A stretch of DNA of 38,395 nucleotides. Origin: a virus. How positions within the stretch are numbered: the stretch's first letter is position 1; each line of letters begins with the position of its first letter. The stretch spans positions 1 to 38,395 of the IMG/VR virus record IMGVR_UViG_3300050821_002537, one strand, 5' to 3'. Shown piece after piece: positions 4,887 through 22,189 of the stretch. The position numbers were made by a program, and so were the translations under genes. The notes below the pieces were generated by a model, which saw only the letters and a program-made list of their open reading frames with translations, ran no database searches and was not told the DNA's origin.

Positions 4887-5246
4887 TCAATATTGAACGA
4901 CCACCAAGTCTACCGTCTGTTGGAGATTAAGATTGGCGTTGGTTGAATTGATTAGCGGCACCTGTACTCGCGGATGGTTGCCAGAAGCGTAAGAACCGCT
5001 AGCTGGAGCCAATAATTGTACCGCGCCAAAAGAAAGTCCAGTATTCATGTTGGCGTTGGCTAAGTTTGCGGGAAGGGTCGCCTCTACCTGGCCGTTGCCC
5101 TGGAATTGAAACGGCACAGTCAGGGTAATAGTGGTTTGGCCGCCATTTCCCGTGACATTGCCAGCGGCTATAGCATTAGGCGAGTAGACGCGAGAGTGTT
5201 CCGAGCTAGTAGTGCGGGTCCAATTGCTTTTCTGAAATGATGCCAT
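4887..5246 (-). CDS. Putative virion surface (decoration-like) protein
   Basis: 119 residues, Asn/Thr/Gly-rich and almost Cys-free, predicted all-beta. ATG 5246 has AAGGAG 9 nt upstream, one of the strongest ribosome sites in the window, which suggests high expression. It resembles the 5753-6139 product in size, composition and ending in a hydrophobic strand. The two are separated only by an HNH-AP2 endonuclease, so they may be neighbours in a decoration or neck module. Function is inferred from composition and context only. Confidence 0.6.
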   Translation of the reverse strand: MASFQKSNWTRTTSSEHSRVYSPNAIAAGNVTGNGGQTTITLTVPFQFQGNGQVEATLPANLANANMNTGLSFGAVQLLAPASGSYASGNHPRVQVPLINSTNANLNLQQTVDLVVVQY

Positions 5247-5250
5247 AATC

Positions 5251-5727
5251 CTAAACTCCTTCTGGAAAATTCAATGTTGCGAATTCCCCATGGTACTGCT
5301 TGGCTGCTGCGTCATATGCTTTGGCGGCTTCTATTTTGTTCTTAAAGTAGCCAAGGCTTTTTTGTTTGCCGTCTACCTTGATTCTAGCCGCCCAGTACGA
5401 ACAACCGCGAACCACAAACCAAACCACGCCACGATATCCGCTTGTATTGTTTTTCTGTACAAGTTGCTTGCGGCGTTGATTATCGCATCTTGCCACGTAC
5501 CGCAAATTGCTTTTCTGGTAATTCAACCTATTGAAATCTATGTGGTCACATTCGTAACCTTTTGGCGGTTGCCCCAGAATAAATTTGTGCATCAGTGTTC
5601 TATCTTTTGTGCTTACCACATATCCGCCATTAAGGATGCACCACTTGCTATAGGCGGTTAACTTTTCAAAGAACTCGTTGTCTACTATTGCAAACATCTC
5701 AGAGTTTGTTAGGGAAATTAGCTTCAT
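5251..5727 (-). CDS. HNH-AP2 homing endonuclease
   Basis: About 158 residues from ATG 5727 (GTG 5745 is the alternative, with no better ribosome site). The HNH_3-type core reads GYECDHIDFNRLNYQKSNLR at about 75-94, with the DH and the N that bind metal. The C-terminal AP2 domain (SGYRGVVWF … YWAARIKVDGK … LGYFKNKIEAAKAYDAAA) is the DNA-binding module found in many mobile HNH proteins. It has landed between two strongly translated small structural-like genes. A TATAAT element just upstream may give it its own promoter. Confidence 0.9.
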   Translation of the reverse strand: MKLISLTNSEMFAIVDNEFFEKLTAYSKWCILNGGYVVSTKDRTLMHKFILGQPPKGYECDHIDFNRLNYQKSNLRYVARCDNQRRKQLVQKNNTSGYRGVVWFVVRGCSYWAARIKVDGKQKSLGYFKNKIEAAKAYDAAAKQYHGEFATLNFPEGV

Positions 5728-5736
5728 TTGGAAGCT

Positions 5737-5742
5737 ATTATA
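5737..5742 (-). promoter_or_regulatory. Candidate -10 box for the HNH-AP2 gene
   Basis: A perfect TATAAT (read on the minus strand) lies 10 nt before ATG 5727. No good -35 is seen at 16-18 nt. Its use would give an almost leaderless transcript. The free-standing LAGLIDADG gene also has a TATAAT close to its start, which is why I list this weak call. Confidence 0.3.
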
Positions 5743-5752
5743 CACCCTATAC

Positions 5753-12123: not shown

Positions 12124-12699
12124 TTAGCCTCGTAATATTTTTGTTTCTTCGGTAACTATGCCGGTTAAGTCTATGTAATTTCCCTTGGTGTCTAATTTAA
12201 ATTTGCGGCGCGGTAGTGGTTTTGTTTCCTTGATAAATCCAACCCTATATTGCGGTCCTTTGTCGTTTAACTTTCTTGATTCTTGGTACATCTGCTCACG
12301 AAGTTCTGGGTTTCTGGTTCTTACCGGCAGCGCCAGATATTTAAGCGCAAGATCAACCAACTCCTGTTTGCCTTCAATGAACGGCTTAATGCCAAGAAGA
12401 AAGCCGCGCTGTTTTTCCTTGCCGGTAATAAACCACTTACCAGAGCGTTTCCAAGCTTCGCCCTTGGTTTCAAAAATCTTGCGGCTATCCCCAGAAGTGT
12501 TTCCCTCTGGAACGTTTTTGGCGAAGAATTCCAAAATTCTTGGATGTGTGTTTGTTACGTTGAGATTGAGGGCATATTGAGTGTAGGCCCGCTTGTCGCC
12601 ATCGTGGAAAGCATCACAACGGGCAATACCAATATGCCCTTCGCCGTCCATGTAAGCGCCCAATCTTGCCCATGTAATTTCGCTAATATTTTCAAACAT
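12124..12699 (-). CDS. Free-standing LAGLIDADG homing endonuclease
   Basis: 191 residues. The single LAGLIDADG motif is LGAYMDGEGHIGIA at about 13-26, with the catalytic acidic residue in DGEGH; a second conserved helix-strand (RGFLLGIKPFIEGKQELVD) lies near 98. Single-motif members act as homodimers that cut long asymmetric DNA sites. It follows directly after the terminator of the intron-bearing capsid gene, exactly where an endonuclease targeting that gene would be selected. The intron-encoded relative at 14118-14630 shares the motif family but is clearly divergent. Confidence 0.9.
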   Translation of the reverse strand: MFENISEITWARLGAYMDGEGHIGIARCDAFHDGDKRAYTQYALNLNVTNTHPRILEFFAKNVPEGNTSGDSRKIFETKGEAWKRSGKWFITGKEKQRGFLLGIKPFIEGKQELVDLALKYLALPVRTRNPELREQMYQESRKLNDKGPQYRVGFIKETKPLPRRKFKLDTKGNYIDLTGIVTEETKILRG

Positions 12700-12788: not shown

Positions 12789-14856
12789 TCAGGATATACT
12801 CGCTTCCGCTTTAATACCTTTGTTATCAAAGACTTACAAGTCTTTGAGCTAGTTCGTTTCCGTCTAGCTCTGCGTATCGCTACGCAGTGCGGACTGACTC
12901 TTTACCCGGCGAGGGGTAATGCCCATACAGTCTCTACGCCTTCCATGTTTCCATGGCTTGGTTCGGCATTGTCTCCAATTGGAGAGTTCCACCGACTTTG
13001 AGCATTTTTCATCTTCAGGTCGCCCTGAAGCGGGCCTATTTGATTAAGCCTAAAACGGGGGTGCAAGGCTGCTGATTGAGGGACCCTCATGGCCGCATAC
13101 TTAAAGTTATAGGCACATGAAGCCCCTACAACTCTAGCAGGATCGGCAACAGACGGTTCCCAGTTTCTTCGCTTTGTTACGCGATTGCTCGCGGTTAGGT
13201 CGTTTCCGCCTAACTCTACATGTCGCCATGCAGGCCGGACTATATCTTCTCCGTTGTCTAGAGTCTCGCGTGTAGTCTCTACGGACTCGCCGCTTTCGCG
13301 GATTGCCTCGGTATTGTCCACTTGGGATGTCCACCGATATAGCGAGATTTTATAATCGCAAGTCATGCTGCTTTCACGATTAGCTGATAGTTACGTTGCT
13401 CTGGGATTTCTGTAGCTCCAAGAGAAACGCTAAATACAGCGTCTTGTCCGACAACATAGGTTCCGTAGCCGGTTTTGGTGCCGGATGGGAAGGCTGCGAA
13501 AGTTGATGCAGTGGTAGTCTCAATGAAACGAGCACCCGCAACATCAATTACTCGATAGCCCTGTACGCCGCGCATCAATTCCTCGCTGCCTTCTTTGTGG
13601 TATTTCAAAATGTCAATAACGCCACCGGCGGTATTATCATTTAGTAAATCAAAGGCGGCAAAGGGGTGAATGATCCCGGCGAACAACCCATCCGTCTGCG
13701 GTCTAACGTCTGCGCCACGAAGGCTCATAACGGCCTGACGTGTCAACGAAGCGCTAAGGAATTCGTTGTCGGTACAGGAAATTACGATGGTGGAATCGGC
13801 GGTAGCCTCAGCTTCAAACTCGGTACGGGCTAGGGTGTTTGCTGTTAGAGCAGCACGGTAGCCCATCTCGGCAGCGGTATTTTCGACGATAGGATCAATT
13901 GCGGTTTCAACGAGAATGTCAGAGAACGAAGCGAAGTCAAAATATTGGTTGACAGCGACGTTTCTGATAGAAGTCGTTGGGTTGATACCAGTTCCAACGG
14001 TACCTTCGGTACCGGGAGTGGTATTAGCCGCAAATAGATCGTAACCGTACAACTGAATAACGCGACCGTTACGGTCTGGAAGCTTACGACGGCTGGTTAC
14101 GGCCACGAACGGGAGATTCAGTTAATCCCAACGGTTTCCCGATGGGCTGGACTATATCTTCCAAGACTTCTAATCTCGGCCAAGCTCTTAGTCTCTGAGG
14201 ACTCGCCAAATCGTTCCTTCTCTGCCACGATAGCTAAATCTTCTTCGGTATATCGCCTCGCCTCGTTACCGCCTTTCGTATATTTCATACGATTGACGAT
14301 AAACCTGCGAAGGATCGCCGCTTCTGCTATCTTGCGACCTATTAGATTCTTTTCTACTAGGTCAAGGAGTTTGAGCATGTCTTCGTGGTGATGAACTACT
14401 ACTTGGAAACATCCATTGGAGTTTTCGCGGATATGGTTTCTTATTCCGTTCTCGTCTTGAATGTTTACCACGTACCAGATTAAAGCTGGATCGCTATTAC
14501 TGAATCCAATCTCTGATCTGAGTTCAAATTTGCCATTTTTTCTTGGATTTCTCCAAAGACTAAAATGGCCCTCACCACTATACAAACCGCCCAACATAAT
14601 TCGGATTGCCTGCTGATTGTCTAATTCCACAGATTTTCCCTTTTTAGGACTGTAGACTCTAAAGATGTTCCAGCATACCGCTTGGTTTATATTAAGGCCA
14701 ATTCCTGTTCGGTTCAAGCCTTAAGATTCTCGACTGCGACCCGCAAAACGTGGGTCAAGAATCAATCTACGACCGGGTCAATTAATCGTAGTAAATGCTA
14801 GCTAAATGCGTTAGTCCTGCTGTAGTCGTTAAAACTGAAGCTGGCTGATACGACAT
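12789..14856 (-). CDS. Major capsid protein (N4-gp56 type), gene split into five exons
   Basis: Spliced exons (minus): 14856-14785, 14743-14717, 14118-13376, 13169-13079, 12806-12789, giving 951 nt, 316 residues. ATG 14856 has AGGTG 6 nt upstream. The joined N-terminus runs …ASIYYD|RVAVENLKA|NLPFVAV…RRKLPDRNG, and aligns gap-free with my memory of the N4-gp56 family pattern (YYD-x-V, then R-x-LP and NG). The core …NVAVNQYFDFASFSDILVET… is typical of that family. The end reads …LIV|RNWEPSVADP…AMRVP|EASIS. It builds the capsid shell. The final exon join (U-A at the splice site) is the least certain; the 41-nt gap between exons 1 and 2 is unexplained by a standard intron. Confidence 0.8.
12807..13078 (-). 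ncRNA. Group I intron 4 of the capsid gene (272 nt, ORF-less)
   Basis: Core elements: GTAGAGACTG and, at 12891-12902, AAGAGTCAGTCC, giving the P7 pairing ACTG/CAGT. The 3' part has three clean hairpins, one with loop GACGGAAACGAA shared with intron 3, then TAACAAAG near the end. The guide at 13023-13032 (CGCTTCAGGG) matches CCCT|GAAGCG, ten of ten. It pairs U with A at the splice site instead of the usual U-G wobble, so the 5' site is less certain than in the other introns; the reading frame is kept. Confidence 0.75.
13170..13375 (-). ncRNA. Group I intron 3 of the capsid gene (206 nt, ORF-less)
   Basis: The R element GTAGAGACTACACG and S element AAGATATAGTCC (13237-13248) give P7 pairing ACTA/TAGT. 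The guide CTTGCGATTA (13353-13362) pairs with TAATCGT|AAG, ten positions with the expected U-G wobble at the 5' site; P1 is 7 bp and P10 is 3 bp. The intron ends …TAACAAAGCG. The join restores LIV|RNWEP, matching FIIRDWEP in the 2489-3088 protein. Small size with no ORF suggests a self-sufficient ribozyme. Confidence 0.9.
13376..14118 (-). CDS. Major capsid protein, main exon (exon 3)
   Basis: 743 nt encoding residues 34-280 and two bases of codon 281. As an isolated frame it appears to begin at GTG 14106 and to read past 13376 to a chance TGA at 13363, but both ends lie at intron borders: AATCTC (first exon bases) follows an intron-final G, and ATCGT ends the exon opposite its guide. An annotation treating 13363-14106 as a whole gene would miss both termini of the capsid protein. 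Confidence 0.85.
14118..14630 (-). CDS. Intron-encoded LAGLIDADG homing endonuclease
   Basis: 170 residues from GTG 14630, which has AAGGG 7 nt upstream; a TTG at 14717 would start inside the exon with no ribosome site. The motif is LGGLYSGEGHFSLWR near residues 13-27. Such proteins cut intronless alleles to spread the intron, and some act as splicing maturases. The C-terminal ~35 residues are encoded by the intron core itself, so this end is constrained by RNA structure. The TGA stop uses the last two intron bases plus the first exon base. Confidence 0.88.
   Translation of the reverse strand: MELDNQQAIRIMLGGLYSGEGHFSLWRNPRKNGKFELRSEIGFSNSDPALIWYVVNIQDENGIRNHIRENSNGCFQVVVHHHEDMLKLLDLVEKNLIGRKIAEAAILRRFIVNRMKYTKGGNEARRYTEEDLAIVAEKERFGESSETKSLAEIRSLGRYSPAHRETVGIN
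14119..14716 (-). ncRNA. Group I intron 2 of the capsid gene (598 nt, carries LAGLIDADG ORF)
   Basis: R element CAGAGACTAAGAGC and S element AAGATATAGTCC (14149-14160) are present, followed by a P9-like hairpin CCCATCGGGAAACCGTTGGG. The guide ATTGGCCTTAA (14692-14702) pairs with TTAAGGCT|AAT: P1 of 8 bp with U-G wobble, P10 of 3 bp. The intron ends in ACTG. The endonuclease reading frame runs through the catalytic core, and its stop codon straddles the 3' splice site. Confidence 0.92.
14744..14784 (-). other. 41-nt intervening element in the capsid gene (guide-only mini-intron)
   Basis: Between exon 1 (ending GAT) and exon 2 (starting CGG) lie 41 nt that begin with in-frame TAA, have stops in all three frames and shift the frame. 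At 14767-14779 it holds GACCCGGTCGTAG, which pairs over all 13 positions with the joined exons CTACGAT|CGGGTC, with a U-G wobble exactly at the 5' splice site (P1 7 bp, P10 6 bp). It ends in G. These are group I splice-guide features, but there is no room for P3-P8. A second GACCC copy can fold with the exon-2 edge. It may be a deletion remnant, a trans-served intron or an assembly loss. Confidence 0.7.
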
Positions 14857-17557: not shown

Positions 17558-18442
17558 CTATTGGCTATTTGGTTTGTGGCCGGTTTCTAGAGCTAGACGC
17601 AAACCGTTCGGGCCTACGTGTTGAGCGTATTCTGGATGCTTGTGCAAAAGTGCGGCTATAACTTTTCCGTCAGACACGCCGCGATAGGCCGGAAATTTAG
17701 TTCTAAGATTTTCCAGAACTACGTTATGGTCGCCAGATTTAGACATGCTAGGTTTAAGTATATTGCCTTCCCTCCATCCGGTTGGCGTACTTGAATCCAC
17801 TACAGAGAAAGCACCCTTGCGAAACATGGAATTAAGTTTGGCTGGATCATTCGTATTGTCTTTTACAGCATCGCGGCTATAACGACTACGAACAGAATCA
17901 AGAAAGGCCATATCGCCAGCGGGCGGTCTACTGCCAGCATGGCTCTGTACAAACGCCCTAGCGGAGTCTTCGTTGTTCTTGACCATCTCCGCTTGCTGTT
18001 CGGTTCCATATGCAGTGAATGGTTTCGTGCTCCCTTTGTCGTAAGAATATTGTGCTGGTCTGTTGGGGTCTAGCGATTTAGCCGGAACGCCGCTTCCAGT
18101 AAATTTATCATTTGTCAGGTTTTGCCAAACGTGCGTGGCTTCATGTAGTTCGTTTTCAGAAAGTTCTTTTGTGCTGGAATCGGTTGCTAGGAAAACTACG
18201 GTTGGAAGGTGTTTTGACAAGACATATCCGCGAAGATTGGTCCCGGAAGCACCGTTGTCGAAAGCAATTCTTATGTCGGATGGGCTGATGCTATCCCCAA
18301 ATGTTTTCTTGATCGCGTTCGCTTCATTGTCTGTAAGCGGACGAGATTGAAGCGCGATACTCTTTATTGTTTCTGGACCAAGACGAGCAAGCGGAGAACC
18401 TATGTGTGGCGCAGTTGTGTCTATGGAATTATCGTCTGGCAT
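17558..18442 (-). CDS. HExxH-motif protein, putative metallopeptidase
   Basis: 294 residues from ATG 18442 (MPDDNSI…), 3 nt after GGTGA; a start at 18481 is possible. The segment ELHEATHVWQ near residue 98-107 has the zinc-peptidase HExxH signature and the surroundings of DUF4157-type (eCIS core) domains. The C-terminal half is rich in Asn, Lys and Gly. In phages such proteins may be ejected or act on envelope proteins. The third zinc ligand is not obvious, so activity is uncertain. It lies after portal, separated only by an inserted HNH gene. Confidence 0.6.
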   Translation of the reverse strand: MPDDNSIDTTAPHIGSPLARLGPETIKSIALQSRPLTDNEANAIKKTFGDSISPSDIRIAFDNGASGTNLRGYVLSKHLPTVVFLATDSSTKELSENELHEATHVWQNLTNDKFTGSGVPAKSLDPNRPAQYSYDKGSTKPFTAYGTEQQAEMVKNNEDSARAFVQSHAGSRPPAGDMAFLDSVRSRYSRDAVKDNTNDPAKLNSMFRKGAFSVVDSSTPTGWREGNILKPSMSKSGDHNVVLENLRTKFPAYRGVSDGKVIAALLHKHPEYAQHVGPNGLRLALETGHKPNSQ

Positions 18443-19238
18443 TGTCACCGCCAGAATATACAAGGCTAAAGATTGGCTCATCCCAGCCCGCAGCCGTATC
18501 GTTGAATTGCAGTAGATATTTTGGGTTGGAGTGCGCGTTTATTTTGGCAATTTGCAGCAAGAAATCTTCTCGTCTTAAATCAAGCTTCATTCTGTTGCAT
18601 ACTCCACAACACGGAACAACATTATCAGGCGTGTATCCTTTGTCGGAGTCAATTCTATCTATTCCGTTGTACTTGAACTTATGAAAGGCTCCCTTAAAGA
18701 GATTCGACGGCGGGGAATCACAATAATAGCAATTCTTTTCTAGGAGGGAATGAAATAGCTCATCAGACAATTCCCAACACAAGTTTCTGTGTTTGGCTCC
18801 TTTTACGTAGTGGCGTTTGGCGGCTCTGCGACCACCCTCTTTAGGCGGAAGAAAGGTTTTGAATTTGTAACATCCGCAACTTCTAACGTTATCCATCACT
18901 AAATTGTTGCACGATACGGTTGTTTCTTTGCCGCAAACACACATACAAAGCCACCTAGAATGGTGGGTTCTATCTAATCCGGCGTAGGCAATAACGGTCA
19001 AATCTCCGAATGTTTGTCCTGATAGGTTTTTAACGCGAGAAGGAATTTCTGGCAATGGAAACCTCTCCCACCGCTTTAATTTAATACGAAGGTTGTTGCA
19101 CTCCTTGCAAAGTTGTCGCTGTCTATAGGAATAGAAATACTTAATCGGCATCCACAGACCTTCGCCATTATTGTGAGCGGAACACCATTGCATTTCTCCA
19201 CTCGGAGTTTTAAGTATTGGTATCGGGGGAGTTGGCAT
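18429..19238 (-). CDS. HNH homing endonuclease
   Basis: 269 residues, ATG overlapping the portal stop (TAATG). A CKECN pair near 44-48, a Cys cluster at 97-122 (WLCMCVCG … SCGC), CYYC at 170-173 and the HNH-type core NGIDRIDSDKGY at 191-202 followed by PCCGVCN. Clearly homologous to 1319-1924 but longer at the N-terminus. Placement right after the portal stop lets it spread without harming the portal. It overlaps the start of the HEATH gene by 14 nt. Confidence 0.88.
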   Translation of the reverse strand: MPTPPIPILKTPSGEMQWCSAHNNGEGLWMPIKYFYSYRQRQLCKECNNLRIKLKRWERFPLPEIPSRVKNLSGQTFGDLTVIAYAGLDRTHHSRWLCMCVCGKETTVSCNNLVMDNVRSCGCYKFKTFLPPKEGGRRAAKRHYVKGAKHRNLCWELSDELFHSLLEKNCYYCDSPPSNLFKGAFHKFKYNGIDRIDSDKGYTPDNVVPCCGVCNRMKLDLRREDFLLQIAKINAHSNPKYLLQFNDTAAGWDEPIFSLVYSGGDNARR

Positions 19239-21451: not shown

Positions 21452-22189
21452 CTAAGCGACTTGGGTTCGCTTTTCTGCTGCCTTAACGCGCTTATATTCT
21501 AGGTGACAGTCCTTGCATCTGGTAGCGTAATGCCAGCGGCCCAGTTCTGGGAAGCGTTTGCTTTTAACCCACGATCTAACCATCTGGTCAATTGGTTTTG
21601 TAGCTCCACAAAAGGTACATGTTTTTTCTTCTGGTTGCGGCTTGGGAACATATGGCCCCATCTTGGCCAGTGCTGCATCACTGCCAATCTTGGCCAATGC
21701 CGACCTTTCCTCTGGAGACAGTTTTTCTTGACGCTTTTGGTTAGCCAATGCTGACAGCGCTGATTTATATTCTGGGGTTCTAGCGGCAGCAGCTTCGCGC
21801 ATTCTCTGTTTGGTTTCCTCTGGCTTTGGTTTTCCCTTGGAAATGTTTCTAAGTTTTTCTTTTGTTGCTTCGCTGGTTACTCGCCCGAGTTGTCCGTCGC
21901 CGCCGATGGTTGCGTTGTATCCAAATTCTTTCATGCTGGATTTGTAGATAGCGACATAGTGTTTCTCTAATCTATTAAGGTCTTTCCTGTCTGCTACCCT
22001 TACTAGCGACTTAATCGTAAAGGCGCTCCTGCCGTATTTCTTTATGGCAAGAAAAAGAGGAGCATGTATACCGGCATAGTGTTCAGCCTTCCAGAACTTA
22101 TTCATCAAGTAATGATTGAGGTTTTCCTTTACAGTTTGGCCAACGTAGACCTTGCCGCTTACGGTACAGGTAATGAGATATATGTGCAT
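21452..22189 (-). CDS. GIY-YIG homing endonuclease with NUMOD3 motif
   Basis: 245 residues from ATG 22189. The nuclease domain starts at once: IYLITCTVSGKVYVGQT (GIY-YIG strands), with catalytic Arg/Glu region ADRKDLNRLEKHYVAIYKS. A NUMOD3-type helix follows (TKEKLRNISKGKPKPEETKQ), and the C-terminus has two zinc pairs (CTFCG … CKDCH). A nearby TTATAC may be its -10. It separates the terminase from the portal, together with a plus-strand operon. Confidence 0.92.
   Translation of the reverse strand: MHIYLITCTVSGKVYVGQTVKENLNHYLMNKFWKAEHYAGIHAPLFLAIKKYGRSAFTIKSLVRVADRKDLNRLEKHYVAIYKSSMKEFGYNATIGGDGQLGRVTSEATKEKLRNISKGKPKPEETKQRMREAAAARTPEYKSALSALANQKRQEKLSPEERSALAKIGSDAALAKMGPYVPKPQPEEKTCTFCGATKPIDQMVRSWVKSKRFPELGRWHYATRCKDCHLEYKRVKAAEKRTQVA

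What the first reader, a model, noticed from the sequence alone, without database searches (positions are those of the whole stretch)
14738..14791. A 41-nt guide-only 'mini-intron' that must be removed to make the capsid protein
Exon 1 (…IYYD) and exon 2 (RVAVENLKA) are separated by 41 nt that start with TAA and shift frame. Joined directly, the two give a capsid N-terminus colinear with the N4-gp56 pattern as I recall it. Inside is GACCCGGTCGTAG, complementary at 13 of 13 positions to the joined exons CTACGAT|CGGGTC, with a U-G wobble at the splice point and a terminal G: these are group I splice rules. No ribozyme core can fit in 41 nt. Possibilities: a core acting in trans (perhaps that of the neighbouring introns), a deletion remnant that kills the gene, or loss of an intron core during assembly. 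If real and functional, this would be a new kind of split or trans-assisted intron. Bypassing like T4 gene 60 is less likely, since no matched landing codon exists.
Basis: partly seen in the sequence, partly recalled or inferred. Interest (0 to 1): 0.93.

Follow-up and report, generated by a model that had tools for sequence, protein, structure and literature searches.

The report
Core-less group I intron in capsid gene
A soil-phage capsid gene is interrupted by 41 bases that look like the two ends of a self-splicing intron whose catalytic middle is missing, so either the phage borrows a neighbouring intron's core to remove them, or this copy of the gene is broken or mis-assembled.

Summary
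On the minus strand the major capsid gene is cut after codon 24 by 41 nt (14784-14744) that begin with TAA and shift the frame. Thirty-two related contigs have an uninterrupted Y-D-R/K junction there, so the joined exons are the ancestral gene. The insert holds GACCCGGTCGTAG, the exact reverse complement of the empty site with C at -1; with this gene's T it gives a 7-bp P1 with U.G at the 5' splice site, an adjoining P10 of 6-7 bp, and a terminal G. Thirteen other insertions in this capsid gene, here and in relatives, are all longer group I introns, and a family-specific model finds clear cores only in this gene. I therefore read the insert as a group I intron that lost its core (0.62). Whether it is still spliced, most plausibly by the core of a neighbouring intron in the same transcript, is open (about 0.3). 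A dead deletion allele or assembly loss is about as likely. No full-length version, and no second mini-intron, was found. Bypassing and re-initiation fit poorly. The nearest precedent is the tiny degenerate group I introns (56-81 nt) of fungal rDNA; 41 nt in a phage mRNA would be smaller and new.

The parts
14785..14856 (-). mcp exon 1 (24 codons, ATG preceded by AGGTGA)
   Evidence: 1 aa difference in 33 from the closest relatives for exons 1+2 despite 20-27 nt differences
14744..14784 (-). 41-nt insert: core-less group I-like intron
14785..14791 (-). P1 exon strand CTACGAT (U.G wobble at the splice point)
14767..14773 (-). P1 guide strand GTCGTAG
   Evidence: begins at insert nt 12; the full mcp introns have it at nt 7-18
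14774..14779 (-). P10 guide strand GACCCG
14738..14743 (-). P10 exon strand CGGGTC (start of exon 2)
14744..14744 (-). terminal G of the insert (omega-G position)
14758..14763 (-). GATTCT, can pair with AGAATC in exon 2 (14730-14725): mid-insert/3'-exon helix, resembling 'PM' of fungal mini-introns
   Evidence: weak, fold z-score -0.95
14717..14743 (-). mcp exon 2, 27 nt (RVAVENLKA)
14119..14716 (-). intron 2, complete group I intron of 598 nt with LAGLIDADG ORF in L6; nearest candidate donor of a core
   Evidence: PF14528 E 3.7e-5; RF00028 16.8 bits; core helices P3 CCAAGC/GCTTGG, P8 CCGAGA/TCTTGG, P7 read by eye
13376..14118 (-). mcp exon 3
13170..13375 (-). intron 3, 206-nt group I intron
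13047..13169 (-). mcp exon 4
12817..13046 (-). intron 4, 230-nt group I intron (RF00028 at its gathering score in the short search)
12789..12816 (-). mcp exon 5 (last codons, ...IKAEASIS*)
   Evidence: by comparison with L016

Best explanation
The 41 nt are the two ends of a group I intron that inserted at the D|R junction of the capsid gene and later lost its catalytic core by internal deletion. Left are the P1 stem with its U.G pair, the P10 guide and the terminal G: what marks the two splice sites, but nothing that catalyses. If this copy of the gene works, the likeliest way is group I chemistry with a borrowed core. The P1 stem docks into the core of a neighbouring complete intron of the same pre-mRNA (intron 2 is nearest, 27 nt downstream). 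Guanosine attacks after GAU, the exon 1 end is held by the guide, and it attacks after the terminal G. Shown: the exons, the insert, the base pairing, the complete neighbouring introns, and the restriction of clear group I cores to this gene. Inferred: the core deletion (no full-length parent found). Not shown: any splicing. I give about 0.62 to the group I origin and about 0.3 to origin plus working removal.
For: Junction fixed by 32 uninterrupted contigs. P1 7 bp starting at insert nt 12, U.G at the 5' site, P10 adjoining, terminal G; 3.7e-4 of shuffles do as well. The seven full introns measured at exact boundaries have P1 of 4-8 bp starting at nt 7-18. Thirteen other insertions in this gene, in the window and six relatives, are group I introns with detectable cores or core motifs. 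In ~390 kb of related genomes, clear cores occur only in mcp, so an insertion here is expected to be group I-derived. Exons 1+2 are under strong protein-level constraint: 20-31 nt but only 1-4 aa differences from close relatives. The rest of the gene and phage is intact.
Against: No full-length intron at this site and no sequence related to the insert was found. Its 3' end (ACGTTTTG) lacks the AAC element shortly before the last G seen in most neighbours. P10 is longer and more perfect than in any neighbour (7 against 0-4), which an inverted duplication would also give. No P3-P8 or P7 can form within 41 nt. Folding of the region is not better than shuffles (z -0.95). It is a single case, with no transcript data.
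Confidence: 0.62

Rival explanations
1. Same origin, but no function: the contig records a dead deletion allele, or a library/assembly loss of the core of an intron that is whole in the living phage. (This overlaps with the origin part of the best explanation and competes with its functional part.)
For: All other introns of this gene are whole; no mini-intron was found in any relative; no natural phage precedent for a guide-only intron was found in the papers searched.
Against: A lethal allele should be rare in a population, yet it is the assembled sequence. No stretch of 12 nt or more in this region is repeated in the window, so a repeat collapse is not apparent. The rest of the phage shows no decay.
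Confidence: 0.32
2. Not an intron: a template-switch mutation copied the opposite strand, leaving an inverted copy of the target site (GACCCGGTCGTAG) within other inserted bases.
For: The 13 nt are an exact reverse complement of the empty site with C at -1, which 18 of 24 Asp junction sequences have. GATTCT and a second GACCC also match the reverse complement of exon 2.
Against: 28 of 41 nt stay largely unexplained. It does not predict the intron-like spacing, the terminal G, or the fact that all other insertions in this gene are group I. It would leave the gene dead.
Confidence: 0.13
3. Ribosomes skip the 41 nt (bypassing as in T4 gene 60), or re-initiate at a TTG inside the insert.
For: Length close to the 50-nt gap of gene 60; a stop codon directly follows the last exon 1 codon (GAT TAA); that codon lies in a stem-loop.
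Against: No Asp codon in the resume frame after the in-frame TGA. [quoted passage not shown] Re-initiation has no Shine-Dalgarno sequence and would drop the conserved N-terminus.
Confidence: 0.05

Closest known systems
Tiny 'degenerate' group I introns of fungal SSU rDNA (PaSSU of Phialophora americana, 67 nt; described range 56-81 nt; PMC3160393)
   Same: P1 with G.U at the 5' splice site, P10 guide inside P1, a mid-intron stretch that can pair with the 3' exon, no standard core
   Different: Those keep a P7-like helix, end in U, lie in rRNA and are reported to splice; this one is 41 nt, in a phage protein gene, ends in G, shows no P7, and splicing is untested
Ordinary phage group I introns (here: mcp introns 2-4 and those of relatives; T4 td from memory)
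   Same: P1 geometry, U.G, terminal G, target gene; T4 td from memory starts with the same TAATTGA
   Different: No P3-P9 core, no ORF; P10 unusually long
Trans-spliced (split) group I introns of organelles (e.g. Prasinoderma, PMC3873408, seen only as a search result)
   Same: Catalytic parts not contiguous with the splice sites
   Different: There the core pieces belong to that intron; here the core would have to come from another intron
T4 gene 60 bypassing
   Same: Short non-coding gap, stop right after the take-off codon, stem-loop
   Different: No matched landing codon

Membership tests
Group I intron | P1 with U.G (or equivalent) at the 5' splice site, formed by an internal guide | tested here: met
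   7 bp, insert nt 12-18
Group I intron | P10 between guide and 3' exon (common, not universal) | tested here: met
   6-7 bp
Group I intron | Terminal G | tested here: met
Group I intron | Conserved catalytic core P3-P8 with P7 guanosine site | tested here: not met
   41 nt cannot hold it; no minus-strand Rfam or R1 match over the insert
Group I intron | Splicing demonstrated | not testable with these tools
   no RNA data
Fungal-type tiny degenerate group I intron | P7-like helix with unpaired nucleotide next to a G-C pair | tested here: not met
   none seen by eye or in the MFE fold
Fungal-type tiny degenerate group I intron | Pairing of mid-intron with the 3' exon (PM) | tested here: inconclusive
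   GATTCT/AGAATC is possible but not beyond chance
[quoted passage not shown]
   no Asp codon in the resume frame after TGA (sequence)

The most novel reading that the evidence does not exclude
A natural 'guide-only' intron: a 41-nt element carrying only splice sites and guide, spliced out of the capsid mRNA by the catalytic core of another intron in the same transcript, so one ribozyme serves two introns.
Probability: 0.25. Interest if true: 0.92.

Novelty: new variant of a known kind. Interest (0 to 1): 0.62.

Why it matters
If the insert is spliced, it would be the smallest group I-type intron reported in the papers read here (the smallest described there is 56 nt) and the first natural case known to me of one group I core serving a second intron's splice sites in a phage. 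That would be a simple parallel to the idea that spliceosomal introns arose when self-splicing introns lost their cores and used one in trans. If it is not spliced, it still shows how a group I intron decays inside an essential gene, and it warns against taking intron-dense viral genes at face value.

Tried and rejected
Full-length parent: exact and gapped pattern scans of IMG/VR (ACGATTAATTGACCC; CGATTAATTGA...GGTCRTA; GTCGTAGATTGATTC) gave only unrelated genes. A genome-contig scan gave one remote hit without bearing. The phage collection gave only a distant capsid relative, Tunturi_3, and chance hits to the region. Homologues of the intron 2 endonuclease: none in IMG/VR or phages. Orphan core elsewhere in the window: none clear with R1, filters off. 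Other mini-introns in the window and four relatives: only background-level hits with nothing to fix the junction. Exon skipping from D straight to exon 3 was considered and rejected: it drops nine conserved residues and the guide does not match exon 3. Archaeal-type bulge-helix-bulge introns were considered and not pursued, since the nearest isolate infects a bacterium. A 16-nt match of the insert to a G002 gene was judged probably chance.

Full report
Setting. The window is a 38,395-base IMG/VR virus record, collinear with ~100-kb relatives. The nearest isolate hit is Tunturiibacter phage Tunturi_3, an acidobacterial phage, at 36% identity in its annotated major head protein. The capsid gene runs on the minus strand from 14856 to about 12789 in five exons. 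The joined protein matches the PHROG 'major head protein' family; Pfam gave no hit.

Observation. Exon 1 ends in GAT at 14785, the insert is 14784-14744 (41 nt), and exon 2 is 14743-14717. In close relatives the same residues are continuous. After two scans of the viral collection, 32 contigs have an uninterrupted Y-D-R/K junction, and none has any insertion there. One distant relative (L076) has a LAGLIDADG-bearing intron a few codons downstream. So the insert is a private event, and its borders are fixed by comparison.

Pairing. The guide pairs with 7 nt of exon 1, with U.G at the splice point, and 6-7 nt of exon 2. Only 3.7e-4 of shuffled 41-mers reach 14 pairs with this fixed junction. When the junction is not fixed, such arrangements are common in these genomes, so the case rests on the fixed junction. 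The exon base at the splice point is T here; it is C in 18 and T in 6 of the Asp-codon junction sequences, so the U that group I chemistry prefers is present but not unusual.

Context. The window's capsid gene holds three complete group I introns of 598, 206 and 230 nt, each with P1, U.G and terminal G. Relatives carry others at different positions of the same gene. A covariance model built from nine of these cores and run over 391 kb finds clear cores only inside mcp; its training members match by construction, so the informative part is the absence elsewhere. With filters off it finds no clear orphan core in the window. Thus every other insertion known in this gene is group I, and the insert has their 5' geometry (guide from nt 12; others nt 7-18). 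This is the main argument for group I origin over an inverted duplication.

What is missing. The insert cannot hold P3-P8. Its 3' end does not resemble that of its neighbours, and its P10 is longer. No parent or homologue was found. The loss of the core is therefore inferred.

Does it work? Start codon, ribosome site and exon protein sequence are well kept (1 aa difference in 33 from L006 and L016 against 20-27 nt differences), and the rest of the gene has no other lesion. Either the insert is recent or it is removed. No frame permits readthrough: frame 0 stops at once (TAA) and the resume frame has TGA. Bypassing lacks a matched landing codon, which gene 60 has (PMC5009743). Re-initiation would lose a conserved N-terminus. 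That leaves RNA removal, a dead allele, or assembly loss. For removal, the guide and terminal G are what a foreign core would need; intron 2 lies 27 nt away. That an isolated P1 stem can be used by a group I core in trans is known to me from laboratory work, from memory and not checked here.

Precedent. Fungal rDNA has degenerate group I introns of 56-81 nt. The 67-nt PaSSU intron is reported to splice in vivo and in vitro, with P1, P7, P10 and a helix between mid-intron and 3' exon, and to need longer exons for activity (PMC3160393). Many lichen group I introns cannot self-splice yet are removed in vivo (PMC8527467). So reduced, assisted group I introns exist, but not, in the papers searched, in phages or without any P7.

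Verdict. A real and well-delimited feature, most likely a group I intron reduced to its ends. Function is open and testable by one cDNA or in vitro experiment. The claim of a new trans-assisted intron is allowed, not shown.

Noticed in passing
12789-14856 and L002, L006, L016, L020, L070, L076: The capsid gene of this phage group is a hotspot of group I introns (13 insertions at several positions in seven genomes), while clear cores were found nowhere else in ~390 kb. Rfam's general model misses most at its gathering score.
   Followed up: yes
12124-12699 (minus): Endonuclease-like ORF directly downstream of mcp, with a 77% identical counterpart at the same place in G001; perhaps a free-standing homing endonuclease tied to the mcp introns.
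   Followed up: partly
1319-1924, 5251-5745, 18429-19238, 21452-22189 (minus): Four more HNH or GIY-YIG endonuclease ORFs between structural genes, apparently free-standing, patchily present in relatives.
   Followed up: partly
relative G002, reverse-strand positions 4899-5504: A 202-aa ORF with 44.6% identity over 47 residues to the capsid protein (window 13989-13849), containing a 16-nt exact match to the insert (ATTGACCCGGTCGTAG). Probably chance, but a capsid-like paralogue is odd.
   Followed up: no
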